Below, in pieces: positions 3,468 through 17,363 of a DNA stretch of 44,369 nucleotides (within the stretch, counting starts at the first letter, position 1; each line of letters starts with the position of its first letter). Origin of the DNA: Silvibacterium sp. (GTDB lineage Bacteria > Acidobacteriota > Terriglobia > Terriglobales > Acidobacteriaceae); contig JAFAKX010000115.1 in assembly GCA_019234945.1 (NCBI GenBank), forward strand, positions 1-44,369, read 5' to 3'. The translations under genes and the position numbers were made by a program. A model generated the notes under the pieces. It did not search any database. It was given only the letters and a program-made list of their open reading frames with translations, and was not told the DNA's origin.

Positions 3468-3491
3468 GACATTAGGTCGCCCTGATTTCGG

Positions 3492-3601
3492 GCATTTTCG
3501 GAATTATTGTGGTCCGTAGAGAGCGGGGCAGGTCGCTGCTTCTTGATAGTCGCGTCGACATTCGATCTGTGGTTTTCGGGATACACCAATTCCGAAAATG
3601 C
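3492..3601 (-). repeat. 110-bp palindromic element, copy 1 (leader of rimM)
   Basis: The element is bounded by a perfect 14-bp inverted repeat: GCATTTTCGGAATT (3492-3505) and AATTCCGAAAATGC (3588-3601). It fills almost the whole gap between the khpA stop (3603) and the rimM start (3467). A related 111-bp copy lies at 16978-17088, with similar inner sequence: CAGGTCGC against CAGGGTCGC, GTCGCGTCGAC against GTCGCGGCGAC, and ACACC next to the right arm in both. On the minus strand the inside holds a small hairpin GTCG-ACG-CGAC. It could be a MITE or ERIC-like repeat or a structured 5' leader. The coordinates and arms are seen directly; the role is inferred. Confidence 0.75.
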
Positions 3602-3602
3602 G

Positions 3603-3887
3603 TTAATGGTCGGACGTCCCGTGCTTATCCTCTTCCAGGATGTCCAGGGTGTATCGATGATGGTGTTTCATGCTGACGGCGCCGAGAATGGTCCGCATGG
3701 ACCGTGCCGTGCGCCCCTGCTTGCCGATTACCTTGCCGACGTCGCTAGGAGCCACGCGCAATCGCAGGACGGTGCTCTCCTCGCGTTCGACAGCTTCAAC
3801 TACAACTGCGTCCGGCTCATCGACCAAGGCGCGGGCAATTTCAGTTACCAGCTCCTGCATGTCATCCGGACGATCTTCGTGCGTCAT
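3603..3887 (-). CDS. khpA: KH-domain RNA-binding protein KhpA (YlqC-like)
   Basis: This small single-KH protein probably partners with KhpB/Jag in RNA binding linked to cell growth. The KH signature VGKVIGKQGRTARSMRTIL lies in the second half. An upstream ATG at 3923 is possible, but a strong GGGAGG seven bases before the ATG at 3887 decides the start, giving 94 residues (MTHEDRPDDM...). It sits between rpsP and rimM, the usual place in many phyla. The TAA stop is directly next to the right arm of the 110-bp element. Confidence 0.93.
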   Translation of the reverse strand: MTHEDRPDDMQELVTEIARALVDEPDAVVVEAVEREESTVLRLRVAPSDVGKVIGKQGRTARSMRTILGAVSMKHHHRYTLDILEEDKHGTSDH

Positions 3888-3962
3888 TGCCGGGCCTCCC
3901 TTGAGGACGTGGGTAAGTCTCACTCTCGGGCTCGCGCCATACTACCAGTAAGTTTGCCGAGA

Positions 3963-3984
3963 AGACAGAGGAATTCTTCTGTCT
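3963..3984 (-). other. Palindrome between rpsP and khpA
   Basis: AGACAGA (3963-3969) and TCTGTCT (3978-3984) flank an inner GAATTC, so the 22 bases are nearly a full palindrome with one mismatch. No U tract follows on the minus strand. It could be an RNA processing or attenuation hairpin in the operon. Confidence 0.4.
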
Positions 3985-4046
3985 CGCCTCGGTGAATTAG
4001 GCGAAACCAGAAATATTGGGGGAAGGAATTCAGCGGAATCAGCGGC

Positions 4047-4295
4047 TCAGGCAGCAGGTGCTTCAACAGGACGCGCTGCCAGCTTGGCGACTCGATCGGA
4101 GAGCTGTGCGCCTTTGCTGGTCCAGTACTCGATGCGGTCGCGTTTGAGGTCGACCGAAGCCGGATTGGTACGCGGGTTATAGGTGCCAACCACCTCGATG
4201 GAGCGGCCGTTGCGGGCGCGTTCCTTTTCGATCACAACCACTCGATAATATGGTTGCTTGCGCGCGCCAACGCGCGCCAGACGAATCATCAACAC
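4047..4295 (-). CDS. rpsP: 30S ribosomal protein S16
   Basis: The 82-residue protein has the S16 pattern MIRLARVGARKQPYYRVVV at its start, then EVVGTYNPRTNPASV and IEYWTSKGAQLSDRVAKLA. S16 is an assembly protein of the 30S body. It is the first gene of the rpsP-khpA-rimM-trmD-rplS group. The start could also be two codons later (MIRL). A leader of about 100 bases separates it from a candidate promoter. Confidence 0.97.
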   Translation of the reverse strand: MLMIRLARVGARKQPYYRVVVIEKERARNGRSIEVVGTYNPRTNPASVDLKRDRIEYWTSKGAQLSDRVAKLAARPVEAPAA

Positions 4296-4390
4296 GGAAA
4301 AATCCTTTCAAAACTTGTGTGTCTGTTGGGGGAGACGGTGCAACTGGACCCTGCGGACAGGCCGATCCGGACACTAATTCCCAGCAACTT

Positions 4391-4396
4391 AGTATA
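4391..4396 (-). promoter_or_regulatory. Candidate -10 box of the rpsP operon
   Basis: On the minus strand TATACT stands about 95 bases before the rpsP start, in the short gap after the upstream esterase. No convincing -35 hexamer is seen at 16-18 bases, so only the -10 is proposed. Confidence 0.4.
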
Positions 4397-4413
4397 ACAA
4401 GAATCCAGCCAGA

Positions 4414-5313
4414 TCAGACTTTTTCCGCGGGAAACAGAAAACGCAGCATGGGACCGACGCGGTGGGACCAGGCGGTTTCGTCATGGGTTCCTCCCGGTAC
4501 GCGCTCGTAATGAAGATCCTCTTCGGCGCGCCATCCCGATGCCTGGAGCCGGCGGTGCAGGAGGTCGGTGTCGGCGAGGGTGCGGCGGCCTTCCGAATCG
4601 CCCACATCGAGCCAGATGCGAGGGCGGTGAAGAAGCCGTGGCGCCCGCTCGTTGACCCAGCCAACAATGGACTTGTGGTTCCACCACACCGAAGGAGACA
4701 TGACGGCCAGCCTGCCGAAGATCTCCGAGTAGTTGAGGCCGAGATAGAGCGCGACGAGACCACCGAGGGATGAGCCGCCGAGGCCAGTGTGTTCGACGCC
4801 GCGGCGGACACGGTAGGTTGATGCTATCCAGGGGATCAAGTCGTGGACCAGTAGCTTGCCGTATTTGTCCGCGTCGCCGCCGCCCATCTTCCAGTCGCGG
4901 GTAGGGGTGTACTCTGCCAGTCGATGCTCGCCCGTGTTGGCGACTCCGACGATGATGAGCGGTTCGACTGCGTCGGCAGCGATCTCCGCGTCGGCGGTTT
5001 CGGCGACCTGCCAGGTGCGGCCCGGGATGAACGAGGTGCGCGGGTCAAAAAGGTTCTGCCCGTCCTGCAGGTAGAGCACGGGGTAGTGACGTTCGGCGTG
5101 CTCCTCATAGCTGGGGGGAAGGTAGACCGAAACGTCGCGATCAGCGGGAAGGAACCGGGAGTGGAACTGGCGGTGCAGGTGGACGCGCGGGTGGGGTGGT
5201 GTTTCGGGCGAGGGGATTTCGATCAGTGTTGGATCAACCTGTGCCTGCGCCGAGATCTGTGTGGCCAATCCTTGCTTGCCCTTTCTGCGCCGAGATTTCG
5301 GCGTCCGCTCCAT
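4414..5313 (-). CDS. Esterase of the enterochelin esterase/PF00756 family
   Basis: This is an alpha/beta hydrolase of 299 residues. The nucleophile elbow is GGSSLGG (179-185, Ser182), preceded by the family pattern YPVLYLQDGQNLFD (about 77-90). The catalytic His is probably in PGGTHDETAW near the C-terminus and the Asp in WLDVGDSEG. The N-terminus is basic (SRRRKGKQG) with no clear signal peptide. The family includes Fes-like siderophore esterases and carbohydrate esterases; the substrate is unknown. It is divergent from another PF00756-like gene only 48 bases away, so the pair probably shares a control region. Confidence 0.85.
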   Translation of the reverse strand: MERTPKSRRRKGKQGLATQISAQAQVDPTLIEIPSPETPPHPRVHLHRQFHSRFLPADRDVSVYLPPSYEEHAERHYPVLYLQDGQNLFDPRTSFIPGRTWQVAETADAEIAADAVEPLIIVGVANTGEHRLAEYTPTRDWKMGGGDADKYGKLLVHDLIPWIASTYRVRRGVEHTGLGGSSLGGLVALYLGLNYSEIFGRLAVMSPSVWWNHKSIVGWVNERAPRLLHRPRIWLDVGDSEGRRTLADTDLLHRRLQASGWRAEEDLHYERVPGGTHDETAWSHRVGPMLRFLFPAEKV

Positions 5314-5361
5314 TTCCTATCTATTAGAGCGGTTGATGCCTGATACAGTAGCAGGAATGTT

Positions 5362-6072
5362 ATGAACCGTGAATATCACAAATGGTGGTCGCCAAGGCTT
5401 GGGCGCGACATGGAACTGCTAGTCTTCGGGCATGCGGGCGTGCCGTTCGTTGTTTTTCCAACGTCGCAGGGGCGGTTCTATGAGTTTGAAGACCGAGGAA
5501 TGATTTCGGCCGTCGGTCACAAGATCGACAACGGCGAGATCCAGTTTTATTGCCTAGACAGCGCGGATTCGGAGAGCTGGTACAACCGGGCCGTTCCCCC
5601 GCGGTGGCGGATCGCCCGACACGTGCAGTACGAGAGCTATGTGATGGAGGAGGTATTGCCCCTCATCCGGCAGAAGAACTGGAATCCCCACCTGGCCAGC
5701 CTGGGAGCGAGCTTCGGCGGCTATCACGCGGTGAACATCGCGCTGCGGCACCCAGACAGATTTACCGGGTTTCTGTCGATGAGCGGCGCTTTTGAGGTGA
5801 GCGGCTTCCTGAACGGGTACCACGATGACGATGTGTATTTCAACGCACCGACTAGCTACCTCCGGAACATGGGTGACTGGTGGTACCTCGAGCGGTATGC
5901 GCGGAGCACTTACATCCTGGCGACAGGATGGGACGACCAGTGCCTGGGAGCGAACCAATATCTTTCTCGGTTGATGGGCGAGAAGTGGATTCCTCACAAG
6001 CTGTACATCTGGAACTCGTGGAACAGTCACGACTGGCCGACCTGGGCTCGGATGATGAACGAGTACCTGTAG
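5362..6072 (+). CDS. PF00756-like esterase, short form
   Basis: The 236-residue alpha/beta hydrolase starts MNREYHKWWSPRLGRDMELL, like many short esterase-family proteins. The nucleophile is Ser117 in GASFGG; GWDDQC and NSHDWPTW near the C-terminus supply candidate acid and His. There is no signal peptide, so it is probably cytoplasmic. AGGA stands five bases before the ATG. It is divergently arranged with the 299-residue esterase. The reaction can only be given as ester hydrolysis. Confidence 0.87.
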   Translation: MNREYHKWWSPRLGRDMELLVFGHAGVPFVVFPTSQGRFYEFEDRGMISAVGHKIDNGEIQFYCLDSADSESWYNRAVPPRWRIARHVQYESYVMEEVLPLIRQKNWNPHLASLGASFGGYHAVNIALRHPDRFTGFLSMSGAFEVSGFLNGYHDDDVYFNAPTSYLRNMGDWWYLERYARSTYILATGWDDQCLGANQYLSRLMGEKWIPHKLYIWNSWNSHDWPTWARMMNEYL

Positions 6073-6366
6073 GAATTCCCCCGCGCGGGATGTTGCTCAG
6101 CCTTCCCGTTTCTGTAAGTGACTCAAATTTGGAACCCCGCAAAAAACTTTTGCTGCAGAGGGTGCAATTTTTTGGCGCACGTGTATAAGATCGAGACAAA
6201 GCACCGATTGCACGGATTTGGCAGTTGGCAGGCCCGGCGAGGGCCTGAACCATGAGGGATCGATGCAGTTCAGGCTCTGCAGGTCTGAGCGGCGATGGGC
6301 GAAAGTTCTCCACGACGTCGCGGCCGGGTCGGGGCCAAGCATGAAGAGAGAGGAAACGTCAGCACA
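6073..6366 (+). promoter_or_regulatory. Leader region of the bactofilin gene
   Basis: This stretch has no convincing gene. A TATAAG -10 candidate is at 6184-6189. A perfect hairpin CAGGCCC (6229-6235) / GGGCCTG (6241-6247) with a five-base loop would lie in the transcript. The frame of the next gene is open back to an ATG at 6295, but that extension looks unlike a bactofilin. Confidence 0.4.
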
Positions 6367-6894
6367 ATGTGGAAACCGAATCAGCAAAACAGCCCTTCAC
6401 AGACGCCCAGTGAACCGGCTCGTCCGGCAGCACCCGCGACCCCCAGTTATGAACCGGCGGCGCGAACTTCCACGACCACCGCGCAGCCTGCGTCCGCCGA
6501 GCAGGCGACGATCGGCAAGAGCCTGGTGATCAAGGGAGAGGTGACCGGATCGGAGTCGCTTTACATCGACGGAAAGGTCGAAGGCTCAATCAACCTGCAG
6601 GGAAATCGCGTGACCGTTGGTCGTAATGGACAGGTCGCGGCCAATATCACCGCGCGCGAGATCGTCGTGCTCGGCAAGGTGCGCGGCAATGTGACCGCCA
6701 GCGATCGCGTGGACATTCGCAGCGAGGGTTCGCTCACCGGTGATGTGACGGCACAGCGGATTTCGATTGAGGACGGCGCGTTCTTCAAAGGCGGCATCGA
6801 CATCCGCAAGCCCGGCAGCGAGTCCAGGCAGCCGGTCAATTCAGGCGCGAGTGTCAATTCCGAGGCCGGGAAGCCTGTTCCGGTGCAAGTGTAA
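6367..6894 (+). CDS. Bactofilin (polymer-forming cytoskeletal protein)
   Basis: Bactofilins polymerise without nucleotide into filaments that position cell-wall and shape factors at the membrane. From the ATG at 6367 the protein has 175 residues. After a Pro/Ala/Thr-rich tail of about 45 residues comes the beta-helical DUF583 core, seen as SLVIKGEVTGSESLYIDGK, NRVTVGRNGQVAANITARE, DRVDIRSEGSLTGDVTAQRI and GAFFKGGIDI, in which a short turn pattern repeats. The C-terminus is disordered. The gene stands alone and is followed by a terminator. Confidence 0.9.
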   Translation: MWKPNQQNSPSQTPSEPARPAAPATPSYEPAARTSTTTAQPASAEQATIGKSLVIKGEVTGSESLYIDGKVEGSINLQGNRVTVGRNGQVAANITAREIVVLGKVRGNVTASDRVDIRSEGSLTGDVTAQRISIEDGAFFKGGIDIRKPGSESRQPVNSGASVNSEAGKPVPVQV

Positions 6895-6917
6895 CTGCTT
6901 CGGCTACGTATTGTGCA

Positions 6918-6951
6918 AAGGCTCCGGGCGAGGTGCGGGGCCTTTTGCTTT
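6918..6951 (+). terminator. Rho-independent terminator after bactofilin
   Basis: AAGGCTCC (6918-6925) pairs with GGGGCCTT (6937-6944), with one G-U pair, and is followed by TTGCTTT. Confidence 0.75.
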
Positions 6952-6982
6952 AACAGGCCTTCCGTTTTGAACAAGCCAGAGC

Positions 6983-7729
6983 TTATGGATTCGCGGCCTT
7001 GAAAGTCGTCGACAGCTTGCCGATGGCAGACGGGTCAGCGTCTCCAATAACGAAATACCTCAATCCCTGCGATTGCCAGGTATCTATGCTGAATGTGTTG
7101 TGATGGCCCACTCCCTCGGGGAACGCAAACGAGCGATCCAGTTCGGGCCCGGCCTGAAAAATCAGCACGGAAATTTTGTGCTGGCGCACAGCGACAATCA
7201 ACTGCGCCCCCGGACGCTGGTGGAAATAGATGACGCGGCCGCCCAGCAGGGTAAATTCCGTGCCTGCGAACTCGGGCACATTGAATGAAAACGGAATCCT
7301 GCCTTGAAACCAGGGCTTCACGGTGTGCCGGTCGGTCGAGACGACGTCGACGGGGTTAGCGCTGGCAAGCGCGTTTACGTGCAGGTCGGCAATTTCGGCG
7401 AAATCATTGGGGCGATGCAGGAACAGCGCTGACGCTATCACCACAAGCAGCACGGCAGCTGCGAAGACTGCCGCAGGAATAAGCTGCAGACGCCAAAATC
7501 GGCGACTGGGGTAGCTGATTTGCTGTTCGACGCGCCGACGAAACTCCGGGCTCGGCGCAAACCGCGGACCGACGGCGCGAAAACCCCGCTTGATTCGGAC
7601 GAGCTCAGCGATCTCCGTCGCGCATTTCGGGCAACCGCCGATATGTTCGCGCAGGGCGGCCGCTTCGCTCGCGTGCAATTCGTCGTCGAGGTACGCGCCT
7701 AGTGCGACGGGGTTTTGATCACAGTCCAT
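6983..7729 (-). CDS. Anti-sigma factor with zinc-binding ZAS domain
   Basis: The 248-residue protein starts with a zinc anti-sigma domain: an H-x3-C-x2-C motif is visible in REHIGGCPKCATEI (about residues 28-41). One membrane helix follows (LIPAAVFAAAVLLVVIASALFL, about 83-104), then a periplasmic domain of about 140 residues. Such proteins hold an ECF sigma factor inactive until a signal arrives. Its start overlaps the end of the sigma gene by 31 bases, so the two are coupled. The periplasmic part is not a known sensor to me; its context with c-type cytochromes suggests redox or haem-related sensing, which is inference. Confidence 0.9.
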   Translation of the reverse strand: MDCDQNPVALGAYLDDELHASEAAALREHIGGCPKCATEIAELVRIKRGFRAVGPRFAPSPEFRRRVEQQISYPSRRFWRLQLIPAAVFAAAVLLVVIASALFLHRPNDFAEIADLHVNALASANPVDVVSTDRHTVKPWFQGRIPFSFNVPEFAGTEFTLLGGRVIYFHQRPGAQLIVAVRQHKISVLIFQAGPELDRSFAFPEGVGHHNTFSIDTWQSQGLRYFVIGDADPSAIGKLSTTFKAANP

Positions 7730-8253
7730 TTCGAGACCTTTTCCGTGGGCTTTGCTGTCAACAGTTCGCGAAGCATTTTTCTGGCGCGAGCCAGGCGCGA
7801 CATCACGGTTCCGATAGGCACACCCAGAACCTCTGCGATCTCTTTGTATTGCATTTCCTCTATTTCACATAGCAGGATGACCTCACGATAGTTCAACGGG
7901 AGACATGCGAGCGCGTCCCTCACGGTTTGCTTTCCTTCCTGCTGCAAGACGAGGAATTCAGGCGTGAGACTGTGCGCGGCCAACGCGGTGATATCCATCT
8001 CGTCGTCGAGAGGTGAGACGTTATGGGCTCCCAGCCCGGTGCGCGAAGTGAGGAATGAATTTCGCAGGATGCGATACATCCATGCACGCAGATTCGTGCC
8101 CTCTTGAAACGATCGGAAGCCTTTCAACGCTTTCGCATAGGTCTCCTGCACCAGGTCTTCGGCGTCGCTTCTGTTGCCGGTCAACCAGTGAGCGAAGTTA
8201 TAGAGTTGGTCGAATAGCGGCATGGCCGCTGCTTCGAAGAACTCGGGATCCAT
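7699..8253 (-). CDS. ECF-type RNA polymerase sigma factor
   Basis: The 184-residue sigma-70 family protein has region 2 in FDQLYNFAHWLTGNRSDAEDLVQETYAKAL (about 14-43) and RAWMYRILRNSFL, and region 4 in LPLNYREVILLCEIEEMQYKEIAEVLGVPIGTVMSRLARARKML. It lacks regions 1 and 3, as expected for the extracytoplasmic-function group. It overlaps its anti-sigma gene and follows the cytochrome c gene by 25 bases, so the sigma factor is at the end of the operon it may itself control. Confidence 0.95.
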   Translation of the reverse strand: MDPEFFEAAAMPLFDQLYNFAHWLTGNRSDAEDLVQETYAKALKGFRSFQEGTNLRAWMYRILRNSFLTSRTGLGAHNVSPLDDEMDITALAAHSLTPEFLVLQQEGKQTVRDALACLPLNYREVILLCEIEEMQYKEIAEVLGVPIGTVMSRLARARKMLRELLTAKPTEKVSKWTVIKTPSH

Positions 8254-8278
8254 CGTCCCCTTCCTGGTTCGACTCTAA

Positions 8279-8734
8279 TTATTTACCTGAGGATAGTCGA
8301 AGAAATCGAATAATCGCAGCGCGTTCATCGGGCTTGGGCACGGAAAAATTCATATCGGTATCCGTGACGACGGACTCCGGACTGCTAAGCCACTTCTCCA
8401 GTGAAACATCGTTCCATGTGAACTGTGCCGATTTCAGCGCATCGGAATACCTGAAGGTAGATACACTGCCGGCCTTTCGTCCATAGACGTTACGAAGCCG
8501 TGGCCCCTCCTTATCCTGATCGAGTGAATGGCATCCGTTGCAGCGCTTCTCAAAAAGCTGCTTGCCTTGCTCTGCATCAAGCGAATCGTCTGCGCCCGTG
8601 GTTCCATTTCTGGCTGCCAACCCCGAAAATGGAGGCACAGCAGACATAATCGCTATCGCCAGGGTGTGCGCGAGAGAAAGCCTGAGCATTTTATTTCTTA
8701 AAGTGGTAAATAGCTTTAGAACGTGGTATGTCAT
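8279..8734 (-). CDS. Class I c-type cytochrome, exported
   Basis: The haem-attachment motif CNGCH is at residues 65-69 and a Met in TDMNF near the C-terminus is a plausible axial ligand. The segment EGPRLRNVYGRKAGSVSTFRYSDALK matches mitochondrial-type cytochrome c. A signal peptide precedes it; the start is either 8734 or, giving a more standard signal peptide, the internal ATG at 8689 (MLRLSLAHTL). Neither has a clear ribosome site. It would carry electrons in the periplasm. It is the third gene of the metallophosphoesterase to anti-sigma operon. Confidence 0.9.
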   Translation of the reverse strand: MTYHVLKLFTTLRNKMLRLSLAHTLAIAIMSAVPPFSGLAARNGTTGADDSLDAEQGKQLFEKRCNGCHSLDQDKEGPRLRNVYGRKAGSVSTFRYSDALKSAQFTWNDVSLEKWLSSPESVVTDTDMNFSVPKPDERAAIIRFLRLSSGK

Positions 8735-8772
8735 GTTTTCTTTATCGGGTAGTTAGGGCCTCTTAGCCTGCC

Positions 8773-9264
8773 TTAGGGCTTTGCTTGCGCTCCGGCAATC
8801 TGCTGTCGGATGTGCCTGCGTTCTGATTTTGCCCAGTCGTAGATAAGCTGCTGCTCTTCGGAGGTAAGCCGCGCCTGGGGATGAAGTATCAGGTACTGGC
8901 GCAGCGGCATCTCTCCGCTGCGCACTTCAGAAGCGATTCTTGACAGAAGATCGATGCGTGCTTGGGAAGTATAGTGCTGCCATTGCGACATATTCAGGTG
9001 CTCGCGGCCCTCGCGTACATCGTGTTCAATGAACCAGGAGACGGGTGCCAGTCTGCTATAAGCCGGCCAGCTGGTCTTTTCGGAATGGCAGTCGCCGCAC
9101 TTTGTTTCCAGCACATGCAGCACGTCGGCCGGCACACCGCTGCCATCAAGCAGCGCGCCAGTAGCCGCGCGCGAACGTGGGTTGCCTCCGAGATGAACGA
9201 ATGAAAGCGCGACGCTGGCAGCGAACAAAGCAGCTGCAGCAAGGGGAATCCGCACCGGACTCAT
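8773..9264 (-). CDS. Haem-binding domain protein (Haem_bd type)
   Basis: The 163-residue protein has an N-terminal signal or anchor (IPLAAAALFAASVALSF) and one CGDCH at residues 56-60. The flanking pattern ETKCGDCHSEKTSWPAYSRLAPVSWFIEHDVREGREHLN is typical of the Haem_bd family, in which C-x-x-C-H binds one haem c. It probably works in the periplasm with the cytochrome encoded next. Its start overlaps the end of the metallophosphoesterase gene by four bases, which indicates translational coupling. Confidence 0.9.
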   Translation of the reverse strand: MSPVRIPLAAAALFAASVALSFVHLGGNPRSRAATGALLDGSGVPADVLHVLETKCGDCHSEKTSWPAYSRLAPVSWFIEHDVREGREHLNMSQWQHYTSQARIDLLSRIASEVRSGEMPLRQYLILHPQARLTSEEQQLIYDWAKSERRHIRQQIAGAQAKP

Positions 9265-10268
9265 AACGAAGCCGCGGAATGCTCGACTGGCGTGCCGGAC
9301 AATGACGCATCAACGATGGCGAGCTGATGCTTCTGCGCGACGAAGTGTACCTCGGTAATGCCCAGCACATCGCGCAACCTCTCCGCGGAGACCTTCATTG
9401 GCCCCGGCGATGGCGCTGAACCGGGTGCGGGCTGCGGAAAAGCTGTGGACATGGCGGTGTGAAACGAGACGTTTCCTTCTACCTTCTGCATTACCTGATG
9501 GATATGCCCGTTCAGGACGGTAACTGAGCCGAACCGCTTCAGCATTGCGAATGCCTGCTCACTGTCCGATGTTCCCCAGCCCCACGAGGGATACAGCGTC
9601 CAGAGCGGAATATGCGCAAAAAGCACAACCGGGGTGCTGTTCTTCACGCCGCTCAGGTCCTGCTTGAGCCAGTTGAGCTGATCCTGGCCAATCTTCCCCA
9701 TGCCTTCGAGCTGCACCACATTGACGAGTCCGATGAAGTGGACACCCTTGTGGTCGAAGCTGTACCACCCGTTTCCCTTCGTGTCCTTGCCATATCTCTC
9801 GAGGAACAGTTTGCCGTCGTCGACAGCGGTGTCATGCTCGCCGGGCACATAAAAGACCTGCCGCTTTGCTCCGCTCAGCACCTGTTGAAGTGTGTCGAAC
9901 TCGGCAGGTTTGGCTGAGTGGGTAAGATCGCCGGTGTGAATCAGAAAATCCGTAACGCCTGAGTAGCCGTTGATCTTCTCCAGCGCGGTGTGGAGAGTTG
10001 CCGTTACGTCGGCATTGGCAGGTTTGTTGAATCCGATATGGCTGTCGCTGATCTGAACGAAGCTGAAATCGGCCTGTCTTGATGGTTGGTGGGTTTGGCC
10101 GAAGACGCGCGAGACGGGAACGCCACCCGCGAAGCTCCAGACGAGTCCTGTGCCCGCCCATGCCATGCACTTGAGGAAGCCACGGCGGTTGATCCCGTCG
10201 TTCTCACTGCCGGTTGGTTGGTGTTCTGTCAAACGTTGAGGGATGCCGGTTTCGAAAATCTCGCTCAC
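9261..10268 (-). CDS. Metallophosphoesterase with Tat signal
   Basis: The calcineurin-like phosphoesterase motifs are in order: SDSHIG (D-x-H), HTGDLTH (G-D), PGEHDT (G-[N/E]-H-D) and NGHIHQ (G-H-x-H). A Tat signal (RRGFLKCMAWAG) precedes them, so the protein is exported folded with its metals. The frame opens at 10301, but the GTG at 10268 has AGGAG five bases before it and is the better start (335 residues). It is the first gene of the operon with the haem-binding protein, cytochrome c and ECF sigma factor. The substrate is unknown. Confidence 0.9.
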   Translation of the reverse strand: MSEIFETGIPQRLTEHQPTGSENDGINRRGFLKCMAWAGTGLVWSFAGGVPVSRVFGQTHQPSRQADFSFVQISDSHIGFNKPANADVTATLHTALEKINGYSGVTDFLIHTGDLTHSAKPAEFDTLQQVLSGAKRQVFYVPGEHDTAVDDGKLFLERYGKDTKGNGWYSFDHKGVHFIGLVNVVQLEGMGKIGQDQLNWLKQDLSGVKNSTPVVLFAHIPLWTLYPSWGWGTSDSEQAFAMLKRFGSVTVLNGHIHQVMQKVEGNVSFHTAMSTAFPQPAPGSAPSPGPMKVSAERLRDVLGITEVHFVAQKHQLAIVDASLSGTPVEHSAASL

Positions 10269-10304
10269 GATCTCTCCTGATTGCGGGAATCGTGCCCGCA
10301 CACC

Positions 10305-10336
10305 GACGAGAACTGTGTGGGCCCAGTTTTATTCCC
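10305..10336 (-). promoter_or_regulatory. Candidate ECF-type promoter of the cytochrome/sigma operon
   Basis: On the minus strand GGGAATAAAA (10327-10336) is followed by CGTC (10305-10308), about 37 bases before the GTG start. The GGAAT-type -35 and CGTC-type -10 resemble ECF promoters, but the spacing of about 21 bases is long, so support is limited. Confidence 0.3.
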
Positions 10337-10434
10337 GGTGTTGAAGATTTTTCGCAGGGGAGATGGTTCGCGATTGAGAGTGCTTTCTCGCCGGCAAAGG
10401 GTGATAAGCTGGATGGAGTATCTCCCGCCTCTGT

Positions 10435-10510
<76 letters not shown>

Positions 10511-10620
10511 AATTACCCCGGTCATCGTTACCAGAACACTACGGGGCAACCTACGAAAGCGCGTGCCTTAACGTCAGCGAGTTGCCGCTTCGGGTATCCT
10601 TGTGCGTGCAAGGAGAGCCC

Positions 10621-11160
10621 ATGAAGATCCAGTCGAAGTTGCTCCTGATCATAGCGGTGTTCGCCATGACAGCCCTGCCAGCGGTCGTGTTCGCTGCCGG
10701 TCCGAAGTCCGTTAAGGTCGTGATGAAGACCGCGGACGGAAAAGACGCCGGAGACGTTGTGCTCAAGCAGGAGAAGGCGGGCATTGAAGTCAAAGTCGAT
10801 TTGAAGAACCTGCCTCCCGGCGAGCACGCGATTCATATCCACCAGAATGCCAAGTGCGACCCGCCCGACTTCAAGACTGCAGGAGGACACTTCAATCCGG
10901 CAGGCAAGAAGCATGGGTATGAAAACCCGGATGGTCACCACAACGGCGATATGCCTCAGAACCTGACGGTGAACGCGGGCGGAGCGGTCAAAGCCACTCT
11001 CGTGAACAAGGACGTGACACTCGATCCCGCAGCAGCAAACTCCGTGTTTTCAAACGGGGGAACAGCCATCGTCGTTCACGCCAAAGCCGATGATATGAAG
11101 ACCGACCCGGCGGGTAATGCTGGAGACCGGATCGCCTGCGGCGTCGTTGTCGCTCCCTAA
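10621..11160 (+). CDS. sodC: Superoxide dismutase [Cu-Zn], periplasmic
   Basis: The enzyme turns superoxide into peroxide and oxygen in the periplasm. The start at 10621 has AAGGAG five bases upstream and yields a signal peptide ([16 protein letters not shown]...VFAA). The Cu ligands are in [12 protein letters not shown], and the bridging and Zn ligands in the [12 protein letters not shown] segment. DIMPQNL-like NGDMPQNL and the C-terminal [12 protein letters not shown] complete the family pattern, with the disulfide cysteines in KCD and IACGVV. It has 179 residues. It is a single gene followed by a shared terminator. Confidence 0.95.
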
Positions 11161-11172
11161 ATCCTGGTCGAA

Positions 11173-11214
11173 AAAAGATGGGCAGATCCGTGAGGGATCT
11201 GCCCGTTGTCTTTT
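11173..11214. terminator. Bidirectional terminator between sodC and aldo/keto reductase
   Basis: GGGCAGATCC (11180-11189) pairs with GGATCTGCCC (11195-11204). A-rich sequence before and TCTTTT after it let the hairpin end both converging transcripts. Confidence 0.85.
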
Positions 11215-11221
11215 GACGGTA

Positions 11222-12097
11222 CTACTTCCGCGCGGCTTCGCCCTCGATGGTTTTCCATTCGTCGGCGCCGAGTTGTACCCCGGCGGCGGCGACGTTTTCT
11301 TCGAGGTGCTCGACCGATGACGTGCCGGGAATCGGCAGCATCACCGGAGAGCGGTGTAGAAGCCATGCGAGCGAGAGCTGTGCAACCGTGACGTTGTGGC
11401 TCTTGGCTGCGGTGTCCAGCGGGCCTCCCGGTCGCGCGAGTGCTCCGGCCGCGACCGGGAACCACGGGATAAATCCCAGATTGTTGTTCTCGCAGAACTT
11501 CAGCGTCGATTCGTACTTGCGATCGCCGACGTTGTATAGGTTCTGCACACTGACAATGGGAACCGTCTTCTTCGCGCGCTCGATTTCGGCGGGTGTGACC
11601 TCCGAAAGGCCCACGTGGCGAATCTTGCCCTGTTTCTGCAGCTCCTTGATCGCGCCGAGCGACTCCTCGACTGGGACTTTGGGGTCGATGCGATGCAACT
11701 GCCAGAGGTCAATCCGTTCGACCCGCAGGCGGCGCAGGCTCATCTCGACGCACTGGCGCAGATACTCGGGACGGCCGACCGGTGCCCAGCGGTTCGGGCC
11801 GGAGCGGGTGAGTCCGGCTTTGGTGGCGATGACTAGCTCGCCCGGATATGGATACAGGGCTTCGGCGATAAGGCGCTCGCTGACTTCCGGGCCGTAGGAA
11901 TCTGCCGTGTCGATGAAGTTCACACCCAACTCAAGGGCACGGCGCAAGACCTGCTTCGCCGTTTCCGGGTCCTTCGGCTCTCCCCAGATGCCTTCGCCGG
12001 TGATGCGCATGGCGCCGAAGCCGAGCCGGTGGATGTGGAGGTCTCCGCCGAGAGCAAAGGTGCCGCTCGCGGCTGCATTCACATGGGTAGTAGCCAT
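11222..12097 (-). CDS. Aldo/keto reductase
   Basis: The 291-residue TIM-barrel oxidoreductase uses NADPH. The catalytic Asp and Tyr are in FIDTADSYG, the Lys in LVIATKAGL, and the His in [11 protein letters not shown]. The NADP-binding end is seen as [17 protein letters not shown]. The substrate cannot be named. It lies 81 bases after hemY on the same strand and could be a distal part of the haem operon, though a functional link is not evident. It ends in TAG. Confidence 0.93.
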
Positions 12098-12178
12098 AGA
12101 TCGTCAGATGCTACCGCTGTGCGGCAGGCTTCGGCAAGATAACGCCTTTGATGGGATGGATCTTTTTGGGGCGCTTTC

Positions 12179-13576
12179 TTAAGCCTGGCCGGCCCGGCGG
12201 GCTGCTTCGCGGCCCTGGCGGATGAGGTCGGGCAGGCCGACTCCATTGTAGGCATTGCCCACGAGTTGCAGACCGGGAAAGCTGCTGGTCAAATGGTTTA
12301 GCTCAGCCATGCGATCGAGGTGGCCCACCGCATATTGAGGCAACGACAGTGGCCATCGGCGAACAAGCGAGATGTCGGGTTCCGGCACCGAGCCGAGCAC
12401 CTGCGAAAGCCGTTCATGCGCGAGGGAGAGCAGTTCAGCGTCACTGCTGCCCAGAAGCGCGGCCGCGGTCTCTCCGCCGAAGAAGGCGCGGAGGAGCACA
12501 GCTCCTTCGGTTGCGCGGTGCGCGAACTTCTGGTTGACGAAGGTACAGGCTAAAAGCTGTGGCCTGGAGTCATGCGACGTGCTTGGGGACGTCTCTGGTA
12601 CGAGATATCCGAATCCGTGAGGAATGCTGAGATGCCGTGCGCGATCGGTGGAGAACGCGAGCGCGATGACGATGGCGGACGTCGCATCCATCGCGAGCAG
12701 CCGATCGAAGTCAGGGTGCAAGGGTGAAAGCAGGCGACGCGTGACGTGCGCGGGCGTGGCGAGAATAACTGCATCGAAGGAGCCGGCAAATCCTGCAGCT
12801 TCGACGTGCCAGGTGCCGGAATCCTGCGCAATGGAATGCACTGTCTGATTCAGCCCGACTGCATTCGGGGGGAGTTCTTCCGCCATGCGCTCGATCAGGG
12901 TTTCGAGGCCGATCTTGAGAGAGGTAAACACTGAGGCCGAGCTGTCGTTCCGCTTTTGTTGCAACGCTGCGATAAGGCTGCCGTGCTCACGTTCGAGCTT
13001 CACGAAGGCGGGCATTACGGCGCGTACGCTGAGTTGTTCAACGCTGCCTCCAAAAACTCCGGCGAGCAGCGGTCCGGCAATGGTGCGTGTGACTTCTTCT
13101 CCAAAATGCCTGCGGACGAAGTTCGCAACGGATTCGTCCACACCTTCAGGCAGTGCGGAGCGTTTCAATTCCTCGGCCTGGAGGTATTCACGCTGGAACG
13201 ACTGCCGGGCCTGCTCGGAGAAAAGCGACGAGTTGAGTACTGGCTCCCACTGCGTAGGGACCATCATGCGCATGCCGTCCGGCATGGGCACGAGCCGGCC
13301 ACCTTCGAGCAGATAGGTGCGACGCCACTGGTCATTTGAGAGGATGATTTCGGACTCGAGTCCCAGTTCGACGGCGAGTTCGCGCGCCCAGGGTTTCTCG
13401 GTCACCCATGAATCGGGGCCACACTCGATCACAAAGCCCTCGCGGCGGACGGTCTCGACGATGCCGCCGAGTCGCTGAGTCGCTTCGAACAGAGCAAATT
13501 CGATACCTTGCTGGGCAAGTTGGTAAGCGGCAGCGACGCCGCTGATGCCTCCTCCAACAACCGCGACCCGCTTCAT
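12179..13576 (-). CDS. hemY: Protoporphyrinogen/coproporphyrinogen III oxidase HemY
   Basis: This FAD enzyme oxidises the porphyrinogen ring in haem synthesis. The N-terminal Rossmann motif is VVGGGISGVAAAYQL and the flavin end motif is GLQLVGNAYNGVGLPDLI near the C-terminus. GFVIECGPDSWVTEKPWA is typical of the HemY (oxygen-dependent) group. It has 465 residues, the normal length. Its ATG overlaps the hemH stop by four bases. Whether the substrate is protoporphyrinogen or coproporphyrinogen depends on whether HemQ is present elsewhere, which the window cannot show. Confidence 0.94.
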   Translation of the reverse strand: MKRVAVVGGGISGVAAAYQLAQQGIEFALFEATQRLGGIVETVRREGFVIECGPDSWVTEKPWARELAVELGLESEIILSNDQWRRTYLLEGGRLVPMPDGMRMMVPTQWEPVLNSSLFSEQARQSFQREYLQAEELKRSALPEGVDESVANFVRRHFGEEVTRTIAGPLLAGVFGGSVEQLSVRAVMPAFVKLEREHGSLIAALQQKRNDSSASVFTSLKIGLETLIERMAEELPPNAVGLNQTVHSIAQDSGTWHVEAAGFAGSFDAVILATPAHVTRRLLSPLHPDFDRLLAMDATSAIVIALAFSTDRARHLSIPHGFGYLVPETSPSTSHDSRPQLLACTFVNQKFAHRATEGAVLLRAFFGGETAAALLGSSDAELLSLAHERLSQVLGSVPEPDISLVRRWPLSLPQYAVGHLDRMAELNHLTSSFPGLQLVGNAYNGVGLPDLIRQGREAARRAGQA

Positions 13577-14502
13577 TGCGCCTTAAGCCGGGCCACTGCC
13601 AAGCGGGACAGATCGGAGAGCGCCGCGATCAGCAGAGGCGATGTGTTCAGCGATTGCGGACGGCGGAGTTCCATCCCCAGATTGGCAGCGAATTGCTGGA
13701 AGCTGATGTCGATATCGTAGAGGATTTCGACGTGATCGCAGAGAAAGCCAATCGGCTGGATGACGAGGTTGCGGACGCCTTCGTCGTGCAGCACCGTGAG
13801 GGTGTCTTCGACGCTGGGGCCGAGCCAGGGCCCGCCCGACATTCCCTGACTCTGGAACGCGAAGCGCCAGTAATCAGCTGCGAGGCCAACGCGCTCGGCG
13901 ACCAGGGCTGCAGTTCGTTTTGCTTCCACTTCGTACGGGTCGGGTGTATCTTCCGGAGACTGTGCCTGGACGGTGCGGAGAGGCACGCTGTGGGCCGTGA
14001 AGAGCACTGAAACGGGGGTACCGGCTTTAGCGGAGAAGGGATCGAGCACGGCGCACAGACGCTCGGCGAAGGCATCGGCAAGCAGCGGATGGTCCGCCCA
14101 TCCTTCGACGAACTCGATCTTCATCCCATCGGCGACAGTGAACAGGGCCTTGCGGTAGAGTCCAACGCTGGTGCGGGAGTTCTGCGCCGCGAGGGAGATC
14201 GCGACCACCCGATCGACGCCGTCCTCGCGCATCTGGCCGACGACGTCGCGGATGTAGGGCTTCCAGTTGCGCATGCCCACATAGACGGGGAGGCTCAGTT
14301 CCTTGGCGAGCAGGCGGCCCTGCTCGAGCGTAAGGGAGGTCAGCGGGCTTTGCCCGATGAGCGAGTAGCGATGGCGAATTTCTTCGACGGCGCTGTCGGG
14401 AAGCGGGCGGCCTCCGGTGATGTTGCGCAGGTATTCGGAGATATCGTCGAGCGAGTCGGGGGTTCCGTGCGCGAGCAGGAGGACCGCGGTGCGGTCAGGC
14501 AT
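13573..14502 (-). CDS. hemH: Ferrochelatase HemH/CpfC
   Basis: The enzyme inserts ferrous iron into the porphyrin. The frame is open upstream within the hemE gene, but the family start MPDRTAVLLLAHGTPDSL sets it at 14502 (309 residues), overlapping the hemE end by eight bases. Catalytic His lies in LFTAHSVP and the conserved acidic region in QPIGFLCDHVEILYDID. It is near the size of the soluble coproporphyrin-type chelatases. It is the middle gene of the overlapping hemE-hemH-hemY set. Confidence 0.94.
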   Translation of the reverse strand: MPDRTAVLLLAHGTPDSLDDISEYLRNITGGRPLPDSAVEEIRHRYSLIGQSPLTSLTLEQGRLLAKELSLPVYVGMRNWKPYIRDVVGQMREDGVDRVVAISLAAQNSRTSVGLYRKALFTVADGMKIEFVEGWADHPLLADAFAERLCAVLDPFSAKAGTPVSVLFTAHSVPLRTVQAQSPEDTPDPYEVEAKRTAALVAERVGLAADYWRFAFQSQGMSGGPWLGPSVEDTLTVLHDEGVRNLVIQPIGFLCDHVEILYDIDISFQQFAANLGMELRRPQSLNTSPLLIAALSDLSRLAVARLKAQ

Positions 14503-15610
14503 GGCTCGCCTCCCGGCGATATTCGCGGACGAAGCGGACCGCGTGTTGGACGTTTTCGACGGGAGTGTTCGGGACGATGCCGTGCCCGAGGTTGAAGATG
14601 TGTCCGGGGCGCCCCCCCGCCTGGTCAAGGATCTGGTGGACGCGCCGGCGGATGAGGTCGGGGTCGGCGAAGAGGGTGATGGGGTCGAGGTTGCCCTGTA
14701 CGGCGCAAGTATAGTCGAGGGTGCACCATGCGGTGTCGAGCGGGGTTCGCCAGTCAAGGCCGAGGACGTCGGCGCCGGTCTCGCGCATCGAGGGGAGCAG
14801 GCTGGCGGTGTCGACCCCGAAGTAGATCACAGGCACGCCCATGGCCTGCACATCGCGGATGAGGACCTTCGTGGCGGGCAGGACGAAGTCCCGGTAGTCT
14901 TCGACGCTCAGGGAACCGGCCCAGCTGTCGAAGACCTGGATGGCGTCGGCTCCGGCCTCGACCTGCTGGCGGGCGAAGTCGCGCAGAACGGAGACAAGCT
15001 TGTCGAGGAGCCGGCGCCAGGCGTCGGGCTGGCGGTACATCAGGGTCTTGGTTTGGACGTAGTTGCGTGAGCCTCCACCCTCGATCATGTAGCTGGCCAA
15101 GGTGTAGGGCGCGCCGCAGAAGCCGATGACGCCTGCATGGTTCCTGAAGTGGGCGACTACCTGGGCGATGGCTTCGGCGACGTAGCCGAGGTCTCCGGCG
15201 CGATCGGTGCGGAGGCGGGCGATGTCTTCGGCGTTGCGGACAGGCTTGTGGATCACTGGACCTTCGCCGGCCGCGAACTCGAAGTCGAGTCCCATGCATT
15301 CAAAGGGCAGGAGCAGGTCGGCGAAGATGATGGCCGCGTCGACATCGAGCTTCTCGGCCGCGGTAATGGTGACCTCGGCGGCCAACTTTGGCTGCTTGCA
15401 GATTTCAAGCAGGGAGTGGTGGCGGCGGACTGCTTGGTACTCCGGCATGTAGCGGCCGGCCTGGCGGAGGAACCAGACGGGAGTGCGGTCCACGGGCTTG
15501 CGCAGGCAGGCGCGGAGGAAGCGCGATCCGCCGGTCATAGCGAGGTTCGGGGCGCCTGGTTCGGTGCCGGTGCTGAGGTCGGCGGAGGAGATTTGGGATC
15601 GTTCGGACAT
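14495..15610 (-). CDS. hemE: Uroporphyrinogen decarboxylase
   Basis: The enzyme removes four carboxyls from uroporphyrinogen III to give coproporphyrinogen III. The N-terminal signature PVWFLRQAGRYMPEY, IIFADLLLPFECMGLDFEF, GFCGAPYTLASYMIEGGGS and the C-terminal FNLGHGIVPNTPVENV are all family blocks. It has 371 residues, with about 25 extra at the N-terminus. It heads the haem operon, and overlapping genes suggest coupled translation. Confidence 0.96.
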   Translation of the reverse strand: MSERSQISSADLSTGTEPGAPNLAMTGGSRFLRACLRKPVDRTPVWFLRQAGRYMPEYQAVRRHHSLLEICKQPKLAAEVTITAAEKLDVDAAIIFADLLLPFECMGLDFEFAAGEGPVIHKPVRNAEDIARLRTDRAGDLGYVAEAIAQVVAHFRNHAGVIGFCGAPYTLASYMIEGGGSRNYVQTKTLMYRQPDAWRRLLDKLVSVLRDFARQQVEAGADAIQVFDSWAGSLSVEDYRDFVLPATKVLIRDVQAMGVPVIYFGVDTASLLPSMRETGADVLGLDWRTPLDTAWCTLDYTCAVQGNLDPITLFADPDLIRRRVHQILDQAGGRPGHIFNLGHGIVPNTPVENVQHAVRFVREYRREASHA

Positions 15611-16058
15611 CTCGAAATGTGTATAGATGAGGTTAAGACATTCCCGGATTCTGTGCCGTTTTGGAACTGCGGCAGTCCTCGCCGGAGGGGGTCCCCCTCC
15701 CCCTTCGAAAACCTCTACTCATACATTCGGCAGGACTTAAGGGGCACCTCGCTCGTACCTCATGCCAGGGAAATGACTTACGCTATGTCATAGGAAACAG
15801 GAGACTTGCAGGCGGAAGCCTTTCCCGTTTTGGAACAAGCCAATTCCCGAGAGAGTGGAAAGCACGGCTGCGCGGGTGCGGCCGCGCGCTCTTCTTGTCT
15901 CTCTATTTTTATTTTAGCCGGTTTGGCGAAATTCTCGGCCAATCGTAGGCAGGGTTCTGCGGCAGGGTTCCGCGATCAGCGGATCAACGCGAGAGATTGG
16001 CTTCCCACCCTTCGCGCTAGCTGCGGCGCTCAGGATGGGCAACGTAGCAGGTTCAGCG
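15611..16058. other. Noncoding stretch between hemE and the aldolase tail
   Basis: No frame here looks coding. It holds a 17-bp palindrome GGAGGGGG-T-CCCCCTCC (15684-15700), a GCGCGG/CCGCGC hairpin (15870-15887), a CCGTTTTGGAACAAGCCA segment near 15827-15844 also seen near 6962, and a fragment with GGCGCTCAGGATGGGC (about 16025-16040) belonging to a dispersed repeat also seen near 17215 and 30640. The hemE promoter should be at its left end, but no clear boxes are seen. Confidence 0.5.
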
Positions 16059-16946
16059 TCAATTCGCGGCCGAAGCGACGCCTACGCTGTTGAAGAGCTT
16101 CAGGCGTGAAATGGCCACTTCTTTCACGGCGTCGATGACTGGCGGAAGAATCTTGTAGGGCACGACTTCGTTCGGCTTTTTGGCCAGGCTGTCTTCGAGG
16201 CTCTACCTCCACGCAACGCGCAACTCGGTGTTGATGTGGACGATATTGATGCCGGCGGCGATCGCTTTTCGGAAGTCTTCATCGTCAGTTCCCGACCCGC
16301 CGTGCAGCGTGATGGGAACGCCTGTGGCCTTCTTGATATCGGCGATGCGCTGGATGTCGAGGTGCTTGCGGGCTTCTCCGCGGACCATGTTTGCGGACAT
16401 GCCGTGCATGTTACCCACGGCGGGAGCGAGGATGTCTATGCCCGTGGCGGCGACATACTCCCTGGCTTCTTCCGGGGTGGTCAGGCCCTTCGAGACGTCG
16501 ATGGTAGTCTCGTGGATTTCGGAGCCGGTGCCGATGTCGCCGATTTCTCCTTCGATGAGCATCCCGGGATGGATCGCTTTGAGTGCTTTCACGGCTTCTT
16601 TGGTCTGGCGGACGTTCTCCTCGATCGGCAACGCGGAGAGATCGAAGACGATGGCATCGAATCCGGCCCGAGCGGCTTCCTCCGCCTTGGCGAGAGAGTG
16701 AGTGTGATCCGCATTGAGAAAGATGGGAACGCCCGACTCCTCGCGCAGACTCCTTACCAGCGCCGCGATCTCGCTGACTCCCATGAAGTCACGCTCGCCC
16801 TGGGATGCGCCTACGATCACTGGAACGTCGAGCTCATTGGCAGCAGCGACGACCGCTTTGAGGAGAACAAGGTCGGAGATATTGAAGTGGCCGATCGCCA
16901 CTCCCCGTTGTTGCGTCTGCTCGAGAACTTCGCGCAGGGTTTGCAT
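16059..16946 (-). pseudogene. Class II (fructose-bisphosphate-type) aldolase with in-frame amber codon
   Basis: From the ATG at 16946 (strong GGAGGAGG five bases upstream) 247 residues are read to a TAG at 16203-16205. The same frame then stays open for 47 more codons to a TGA at 16059. This tail (SLEDSLAKKPNEVVPYKIL, then DAVKEVAISRLKLF) is the expected C-terminus of the family, so the full product would have 295 positions. Zinc and substrate motifs are before the TAG: LNADHTHS (D80, H81), IEGEIGDIG (E132/E134), H181, HGGSG (H215) and HINTE. The family cleaves fructose or tagatose bisphosphate. The cause may be a recent mutation, a sequencing error or stop readthrough. The truncated form would lack the last helices. 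Confidence 0.85.
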
Positions 16947-16977
16947 GCGTACCTCCTCCGGCTTCCTGGGATCTACG

Positions 16978-17088
16978 GCATTTTCAGAGATACCGTAGCC
17001 CACATCGGCGTTGTACAGGGTCGCCGACTCCCTGTTGGTCGCGGCGACTTGAGGCTAGCGGCCGGGGAGACACCATCTCTGAAAATGC
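16978..17088 (-). repeat. 111-bp palindromic element, copy 2 (leader of the aldolase)
   Basis: A perfect 14-bp inverted repeat, GCATTTTCAGAGAT (16978-16991) and ATCTCTGAAAATGC (17075-17088), bounds it. Compared with copy 1 at 3492-3601 three arm positions differ, and each change is matched in the opposite arm. Inner blocks are shared. It ends 31 bases before the aldolase ATG. On the minus strand CTACGG before the second arm can instead pair with CCGTAG after it, an alternative hairpin that excludes the long stem. Confidence 0.75.
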
Positions 17089-17275
17089 TTTAAGGCGATT
17101 CTGCGCCCCGGGCGGTAAACAATTCAACCGCGCCCCGTGCAGGTTAACGAAAATTCAACTTTCCGACTGATCAGCTGTTTAGATCATCGCTTCTCACCTT
17201 CACACCAACAGCGGGCGCTCAGGATGGGGACCCTCGCTCCGCCTCAATTCCAGTTCGGTGCGAGCGACCAATGCC

Positions 17276-17363
17276 GTCCCTTCGGGACTCAGGGCCGCTT
17301 TTTGCTATTGTCCCGGCACTGCCGTGCCGGGCTACAGATTTGTCGCGTCCCTGACGGGACTCG
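17276..17363 (+). repeat. REP-like palindrome cluster
   Basis: Three hairpins stand in a row: GTCCC-ttc-GGGAC (17276-17288), CCCGGCAC-tgcc-GTGCCGGG (17312-17331) followed by CTACAGATT, and GTCCC...GGGAC (17347-17360). The same architecture occurs twice inside the multicopper oxidase gene (about 32727-32815 and 32902-32990). It is an intergenic repeat next to the kinase tail remnant. Confidence 0.75.

What the first reader, a model, noticed from the sequence alone, without database searches (positions are those of the whole stretch)
3492..17088. Two related ~110-bp elements with perfect 14-bp inverted ends and compensatory changes, each in a 5' leader
Copies at 3492-3601 and 16978-17088 share size (110 and 111 bp), end sequence GCATTTTC[A/G]GA and inner blocks (CAGG[G]TCGC, GTCGCG[T/G]CGAC, ACACC by the right arm). 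The arms differ at three positions, and each change is matched in the other arm, so base pairing is kept. Both lie on the same side of their genes, 24 bases before rimM and 31 before the aldolase. They are either a MITE/ERIC-like repeat that folds in mRNA or a structured regulatory leader. I know no described element with this pattern, though I cannot search.
Basis: partly seen in the sequence, partly recalled or inferred. Interest (0 to 1): 0.82.

Follow-up and report, generated by a model that had tools for sequence, protein, structure and literature searches.

The report
Mobile hairpin repeat in acidobacterial genomes
The two look-alike 110-base hairpins are copies of a small non-coding jumping DNA element found in up to dozens of copies in related acidobacteria; it is most likely not a gene-control switch, and although I found no earlier description of it, it belongs to a familiar kind.

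Summary
In detail: two homologous palindromes (3492-3601, 16978-17088) have perfect 14-bp arms and matched arm changes. They are copies of a dispersed repeat: 29 places in the window's own genome (3.5 Mb, 72% complete), about 70 arm hits per strand in one relative. TA stands two bases outside both ends in 57 of 106 copies (control 0.1%). Six of 22 vacant-site alignments lack the element plus exactly two bases, TA in three of them. Copy 1 sits in the khpA stop codon, where eight congeners have none, and the element's end rebuilds TAA. Of 142 classifiable copies, 31% lie between convergent genes, against a dedicated 5'-leader role for the family. Outer arms and an inner hairpin covary (28 of 31 pairs); in the outer stem G-U pairs do not outnumber A-C mismatches, though four inner columns are mostly G-U. 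Best reading: a TA-duplicating MITE-like element, probably moved by a DDE transposase. No autonomous partner was found among IS630, IS427-type, PF01609 or tyrosine transposases. No Rfam family matches, and no description turned up in my literature searches. A new family of a known kind (RUP, ERIC, Correia).

The parts
3490..3603 (+). Element copy 1 with its inferred terminal dinucleotides (palindrome proper 3492-3601); inserted in the khpA stop codon, 24 bases before rimM
3492..3505 (+). left arm of copy 1 (14 bp, GCATTTTCGGAATT)
   Evidence: pairs with 3588-3601 in fold
3588..3601 (+). right arm of copy 1
3604..3605 (.). right TA of the inferred target duplication; together with base 3603 it forms the khpA stop codon TAA on the - strand. 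The left TA (expected at 3488-3489) now reads TC
16976..17090 (+). Element copy 2 with its inferred terminal dinucleotides (palindrome proper 16978-17088), 31 bases before the aldolase start
   Evidence: absent from the G008 locus
16974..16975 (.). left TA of the inferred target duplication of copy 2
   Evidence: flank profile
17091..17092 (.). right TA of the inferred target duplication of copy 2
   Evidence: flank profile
3603..3923 (-). khpA-like KH-domain protein gene; its stop codon is the insertion site of copy 1
   Evidence: Pfam PF13083; five congeners end at the same codon
2874..3467 (-). rimM, downstream of copy 1
   Evidence: Pfam PF01782
16203..16946 (-). class-II fructose-bisphosphate aldolase family gene, downstream of copy 2
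   Evidence: Pfam PF01116 (which was given 16203-16949)

Best explanation
Both features are copies of one family of small, non-coding mobile elements (MITE-like), about 113-115 bp including two terminal bases on each side of the palindrome. They insert at Y-TA-R-like sites in intergenic DNA and duplicate the TA. Shown: many dispersed copies, TA at both ends far above chance, vacant sites in relatives, near-identical copies at unrelated sites in one genome, patchy distribution, and a covarying palindrome (outer stem plus inner hairpin). Inferred: a DDE transposase acting in trans cuts at the GC-bounded arms; the CTAG-like site and the TAGAGC-type ends of some subfamilies resemble IS5-family (IS427-type) elements, and the TA duplication also fits IS630. 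Also inferred: the palindrome is kept at DNA level, by the need for two matching ends and by hairpin template-switch repair, rather than because a transcript is regulatory. Copies tend to lie near stop codons, and several rebuild the stop from the duplicated TA plus one element base, which would make insertion nearly harmless.
For: Own genome: 10 exact-end copies, reversed-pattern control 0; 29 distinct places at E<1e-5 with the covariance model, of which 10 trained it. TA two bases outside both ends in 57 of 106 copies, control positions 0.0011; flank profile of 109 copies. Vacant sites: 28 filled/vacant pairs tried, 22 spanned the junction, 6 of these (5 insertion loci) lack exactly 6 bases (4 element bases plus 2), four as one clean gap and two interrupted by one base; the vacant dinucleotide is TA in 3 of the 6 (counted by eye). 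khpA: no element in 8 of 8 congener loci. Recent burst: 17 copies in one genome, median identity 0.986, flanks 0.54. 4 of 171 copies called intragenic, against a coding fraction of 0.80. No frame is open in more than 60 of 103 copies.
Against: No autonomous element with these arms was found: PF13358, PF13340, PF01609, arm scans in two genomes; but most genomes are fragmented MAGs and ends could be read for a minority of the transposase loci. Sixteen of the 22 spanning alignments do not show the 6-base difference, both window copies among them; in some (L019/L154, L029/L152, L022/L148) the vacant site aligns with little or no gap at the junction, which the model does not predict, though L019 and L029 have no TA left. 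In three of the six clean cases the vacant site reads TG (L017), TT (L023) or GG (L028/L119) where TA is expected. Perfect arms of 12 bp or more are kept in only 51 of 109 copies. Arms diverge between subfamilies while the interior stays recognisable, the reverse of an ordinary transposase-defined MITE.
Confidence: 0.84

Rival explanations
1. Structured regulatory leader: the element is a cis-acting RNA in the 5' leader of specific genes (rimM, aldolase), and the matched changes keep an RNA fold.
For: Strong fold; 28 of 31 pairs covary; both window copies lie just upstream of genes on the same side. Four inner columns are mostly G-U on the canonical strand (101 of 145 inner G-U cells, against 9 A-C cells there), which a folded single strand would explain.
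Against: 44 of 142 copies lie between convergent genes and orientation is not fixed (30 with, 47 against). G-U and A-C cells are equal in the outer stem (22 vs 20) and, outside the four columns, 44 vs 59 in the inner helices; the plus/minus fold difference equals that of shuffled sequences. The khpA-rimM loci of 8 congeners have none. No Rfam match.
Confidence: 0.05
2. REP-type element moved by a tyrosine (Y1/HUH, RAYT or TIRYT) transposase that recognises the hairpin.
For: Y1 genes in 10 of 12 genomes examined. Acidobacterial TIR-flanked tyrosine transposases are described in PMC3733652 (section 16 read).
Against: Only 2 of 30 Y1 loci have a copy nearby and none has copies on both sides, about what copy density would give (my estimate). 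Long inverted repeats that flank several Y1 genes are other repeats, such as GGGTGCCCCACC and GGCACGGCTTCAGCCGTGCC. The family shows TA at both ends, whereas IS200/IS605-type transposition makes no target duplication (recalled).
Confidence: 0.05
3. The compensatory changes come from replication template-switching within the hairpin (quasipalindrome correction), not from selection on structure.
For: No wobble preference in the outer stem. Near-perfect arms coexist with strongly diverged arm sequences. The mechanism is in print as creating and maintaining hairpins (PMC8794818, title and start of abstract only).
Against: Does not by itself explain the conserved blocks (CTTCGGGATACA, TGTGCCC) seen across subfamilies, the four G-U columns, or why a hybrid with unmatched arms (L336) exists uncorrected.
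Confidence: 0.4
4. Mobilised by an IS630-type rather than an IS5/IS427-type transposase.
For: TA duplication is the IS630 hallmark (recalled), and RUP is the printed precedent (PMC2229807, passages). IS630-like elements in these genomes sit in YTA...TAR.
Against: The IS630-like ends that could be read (about five of 20 loci, for example GTGTTTTGTCCC) do not resemble the element's ends. IS427-type elements share the CTAG-like site and, in four of about eight readable cases, the start TAGAGC. Neither type was found in the own genome.
Confidence: 0.35

Closest known systems
RUP (repeat unit of pneumococcus, IS630-Spn1-associated MITE)
   Same: 107 bp, dispersed, intergenic, TA at the ends, long stem-loop, over-represented between convergent genes (PMC2229807 and PMC3049150, passages)
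   Different: RUP has a named IS partner with similar ends; here none was found. I made no sequence comparison with RUP. Here arms diverge between subfamilies while pairing is kept.
ERIC/IRU/RU-1 of enterobacteria
   Same: 127 bp, palindromic, TA at the ends, found co-transcribed with neighbours (PMC2229807, passages)
   Different: Different host group and length; I did not align ERIC itself.
Correia/NEMIS elements (Neisseria)
   Same: Small (107 and 155 bp forms), TA at termini, terminal inverted repeats, target duplication (PMC2229807, passages)
   Different: Different hosts; arms not compared letter by letter.
CIR repeats of Caulobacter/Brucella
   Same: TA at the termini (PMC2229807, passages). 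Caulobacter vibrioides copies met share CTAGAGCATTTTC ends; that these are CIR is my inference.
   Different: The Caulobacter copies are 95 bp with two separate hairpins; the inner blocks differ.
IS5-family IS427-type insertion sequences (family name recalled; DUF4096 PF13340 found)
   Same: CTAG or TTAG site with TA on both sides; four of about eight readable ends start TAGAGC
   Different: Others start TAGGGC, TAGAGG or TAGAAC, and the rest of the end differs (GCGTGTTTCATAAA and similar); they are full transposons.

Membership tests
[quoted passage not shown]
   103 of 109 copies are 105-116 bp, six longer, up to 154 bp
[quoted passage not shown] 9 bp for RUP and 7 for ERIC in PMC2229807) | tested here: met
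   Perfect arms of 12-15 bp in 51 of 109 copies, interrupted in the rest; 92.7% of outer-stem cells pair over 50 copies. At or just under the 15-30 bp figure.
[quoted passage not shown]
   TA on both sides in 57 of 106 copies, control 0.0011; 6 of 22 spanning vacant-site alignments lack exactly two bases beyond the element, TA in three
[quoted passage not shown]
   No frame open in more than 60 of 103 copies
[quoted passage not shown]
   29 places in own genome; 71 forward and 73 reverse arm hits in G061
[quoted passage not shown]
   None found: PF13358 in 15 genomes, PF13340 in 12, PF01609 in 7; most are fragmented MAGs and many loci had unreadable ends
[quoted passage not shown]
   needs strains or re-sequencing
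IS630-derived MITE (RUP type) | Ends match an IS630 element of the host | tested here: not met
   Readable IS630 ends differ; no PF13358 in own genome, which is 72% complete
IS427-type (IS5) derived MITE | Ends match such an element of the host | tested here: not met
   At most TAGAGC shared; PF13340 absent from own genome
REP/RAYT or TIRYT element | 20-40 bp palindrome with a GTAG/CGTC tag, associated with tyrosine transposase genes | tested here: not met
   Length about 110 bp; no Y1 gene of 30 has copies on both sides
Known Rfam RNA family | Covariance-model score above the gathering cut-off | tested here: not met
   gathering; evalue mode, only hits far below cut-off
cis-regulatory leader RNA | Consistent orientation and position upstream of a gene class | tested here: not met
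   Mixed orientation, 44 of 142 between convergent genes

The most novel reading that the evidence does not exclude
The element is recognised by its folded shape rather than by the sequence of its ends. Arms drift freely and exchange between subfamilies as long as they pair, while a GC base, inner blocks and an inner hairpin persist. It would then move by an undescribed hairpin-recognising enzyme that nevertheless duplicates a TA and often regenerates the stop codon it enters.
Probability: 0.1. Interest if true: 0.72.

Novelty: new member of a known kind. Interest (0 to 1): 0.4.

Why it matters
It adds a MITE-like family to the Acidobacteria, for which the listings of my searches (5 of 5, 15 of 770 and 10 of 168 papers shown) held no paper whose title or abstract start describes such an element. 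It is also a case in which strong base-pair covariation need not mean a functional RNA: a covariation search would readily call it a structured RNA, while the lack of wobble bias in the outer stem, the TA pairs at its ends and the stop-codon insertions point to a mobile DNA element. RNA-motif surveys of Acidobacteriaceae would do well to mask it.

Tried and rejected
Dedicated leader or riboswitch: rejected for the family on orientation, convergent placement, vacant khpA-rimM loci and no Rfam match.

RAYT/TIRYT mobilisation: rejected on lack of flanking copies.

IS630, IS427-type and PF01609 partners: searched in 15, 12 and 7 genomes, none found with these arms; ends could be read for about five of 20 PF13358 loci and eight of 22 PF13340 loci. 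Larger elements bounded by unpaired arms in G061/G062: 20 stretches read, none found; partners were mutated, cut by a contig end, internally deleted (L329), hybrid (L336) or lengthened. One search listed only part of the arm places.

Strand-specific RNA selection: the plus-strand fold is more stable by 4.0 kcal/mol on average (37 of 49 copies), but shuffled sequences give 4.2 (38 of 49), so it is a composition effect. The G-U excess in the two inner helices (145 vs 68 cells) comes from four columns (101 vs 9); without them it is 44 vs 59 (counted). Those four columns remain unexplained.

Counts to qualify: one search used 182 copies; one search removed 11 as duplicates (same element plus 6 flank bases), but L186, L188 and L235 lie on other contigs than the copies they were merged with, so three may be real places dropped. 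Ten of the 80 loci were left out of all counts: Flavobacterium, Phycisphaeraceae, Bacteroidetes, two Lachnospiraceae and Tepidimicrobium, which look like chance or other repeats, and four Caulobacter composites; a few of the 70 kept (for example L223) are doubtful. One search made 116 loci, of which I read the 80 listed. Gene calls are from my own dicodon script, not a standard caller. One search dropped 13 further loci of uncertain orientation and copies outside 104-114 bp, then kept 49 copies under 80% identity; window copy 1 was added unfiltered to make the 50 of A5. The structure counted was drawn by me from these alignments, which favours it over the slid controls. In one search only 9 candidates per genome were scored, so prevalence is a lower bound. 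The arm-by-core table left 68 of 182 copies with an unclassified core. The plasmid, phage and E. coli collections were not searched.

Full report
The observation. Both copies are present as described. They are homologous in the same orientation with perfect 14-bp arms, and no other place in the window fits the pattern. Each folds better than nearly all of 200 shuffles on either strand.

It is a repeat family. The own genome holds ten copies with exact ends and none of the reversed control pattern. A covariance model built on those ten finds 29 distinct places at E<1e-5 in the own genome, the ten training copies included. In 61 genomes it matches 11, own included, with counts that include both strands: 54 matches in one genus of the same family (G016), 20 and 17 in two congeners, 2 in a nearly complete congener in nine contigs, 0 in the single-contig congener G002, and one weak match outside the family (G037, same order, E 7e-6). 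In an even draw of 396 genomes of the phylum, 5 match at E<=1e-5, all of the same family; only 9 candidates per genome were scored, so this is a lower bound.

It moves. The bases flanking 109 copies read Y-TA-N-N on the left (T 95, A 99, pyrimidine before them 104 of 109) and N-N-TA-G on the right (T 95, A 78, G 70). TA stands two bases outside both ends in 57 of 106 copies with long flanks, against 0.11% at control positions. Joined flanks of 19 own-genome copies (and part of a twentieth) were searched in the genus and 28 pairs aligned. Six did not span the junction. Of the 22 that did, six, from five insertion loci (L011 twice, L012, L017, L023, L028), lack exactly six bases next to the junction: two terminal element bases on each side plus two more. 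Four of these are one clean gap and two are interrupted by one base. The dinucleotide left in the vacant site is TA in three (L011 twice, L012), TG in L017, TT in L023 and GG in L028 (my reading by eye). The other 16 show no clean 6-base difference. Most are diverged; three (L019/L154, L029/L152, L022/L148) align with little or no gap at the junction, against the model, two of them at copies whose TAs are gone. Both window copies are among the 16, but the model finds no element in the congener loci. One site (L018/L059) is occupied in both G000 and G005, judging by matching flanks, so some insertions are older. In one genome (G061) the 13-base arm occurs 71 times forward and 73 times reverse; 17 copies from it are 98.6% identical at the median, with unrelated flanks.

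Where it lands. By my own gene calls, 4 of 171 distinct copies are intragenic (all within 75 bases of a called gene start), 25 lie at contig edges, and 142 are intergenic: 44 between convergent genes, 21 divergent, 77 tandem (30 with, 47 against the element's orientation, p 0.07). Convergent gaps are enriched against element-free gaps of the same loci (36 of 238; Fisher p 0.0004). Copies hug gene 3' ends (41 of 165 within 10 bp, against 12 of 119 for 5' ends). Twenty of the 165 lie at exactly one spacing, where the duplicated dinucleotide plus one element base spells the stop codon, against one at the four neighbouring spacings; of 21 listed before removal of duplicates, 19 are TAA or TAG and two TGA. 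Such a stop could also mark a truncated gene. For window copy 1 it does not: KhpA of G005, G008, G001, G006 and G002 ends at the same codon with its own TAA or TAG, the other three congeners end elsewhere, and no element lies within 40 bases after the stop in any of the eight or anywhere in their loci. The 24-base gap to rimM is then about the size of the old spacer (20 bases in G005).

Structure. On 49 copies under 80% identity plus window copy 1, with a structure drawn by me, 28 of 31 pairs in three helices (outer stem, middle helix, inner hairpin) show a change on both sides. 83.7% of cells pair, against 71.2% in shuffles and 33-46% when the partner is slid. Arms GCATTTTC, GCAAATCC, GCAAAACC and GCGGTTCC all occur with matching partners, and two arm types occur with both core types, so arms and cores appear to have been reassorted (with 68 of 182 cores unclassified). 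A copy with a foreign right arm (L336) and an internally deleted copy (L329) look like such events. If a transcript were selected, G-U pairs should outnumber A-C mismatches. In the outer stem they are 22 and 20. In the inner helices they are 145 and 68, but 101 of the 145 lie in four columns; elsewhere they are 44 and 59. The four columns are a point for a folded single strand that I cannot explain away. On balance the structure is better explained at DNA level, by matching ends plus hairpin template-switch repair (a mechanism in print: PMC8794818, title and abstract start only), with the conserved inner blocks unexplained.

Mobiliser. IS630-type elements in these genomes sit at YTA...TAR but have other ends where readable. 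IS5/IS427-type elements (family name recalled; PF13340) share the CTAG-like site and in four of about eight readable cases the start TAGAGC, but not the rest; they are missing from the own genome and six others. PF01609 elements and Y1 genes do not carry the arms either. No partner was found. Most genomes are fragmented, so absence is weak evidence.

Known or new. No Rfam match. Searches for acidobacterial MITEs and palindromic repeats (capped lists) showed no paper describing it by title or abstract start. PMC8841776, an acidobacterial genome paper that holds the MITE term, has it only in its reference list. PMC3733652 describes REPs and tyrosine transposases with other repeats (section 16 read). 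RUP, ERIC and Correia share the build (PMC2229807, PMC3049150, passages). I rate it a new member of a known kind, with an unusual degree of arm divergence under kept pairing.

Noticed in passing
window 32767-32814, with related copies at 32940-32969 and 17311-17340: Rfam's Acido-Lenti-1 'sRNA' hit lies in a direct repeat, and its hairpin CCCGGCACTTCCGTGCCGGGCTAC recurs. Read on the other strand it starts with GTAG, and somewhat similar hairpins flank tyrosine transposase genes, so this Rfam family may be a REP element rather than an sRNA.
   Followed up: partly
L029, L030, L032, L072, L332, L333, L335: Long forms (146-154 bp) carry an extra hairpin of about 40 bp (CCACCCC...GGGG type) in the apical loop. 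In L332 it is flanked by a 7-base repeat GTTGGTC, as if a second tiny mobile hairpin had inserted there.
   Followed up: partly
L182, L221, L230, L241 (Caulobacter vibrioides DSM 9893): 95-bp repeats with CTAGAGCATTTTC...GAAAATGCTCTAG ends and two separate hairpins, sharing the outer end sequence with the acidobacterial element. Possibly CIR elements and a shared end type.
   Followed up: no
copies with exact 1-base spacing to a stop codon (20 of 165 gene 3' ends): The element end plus the duplicated TA spells the stop codon of the neighbouring gene, a possible rule for harmless insertion; checked against relatives only for khpA.
   Followed up: partly
L336, L334: Hybrid and composite copies joining parts of different subfamilies, traces of arm exchange.
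   Followed up: partly
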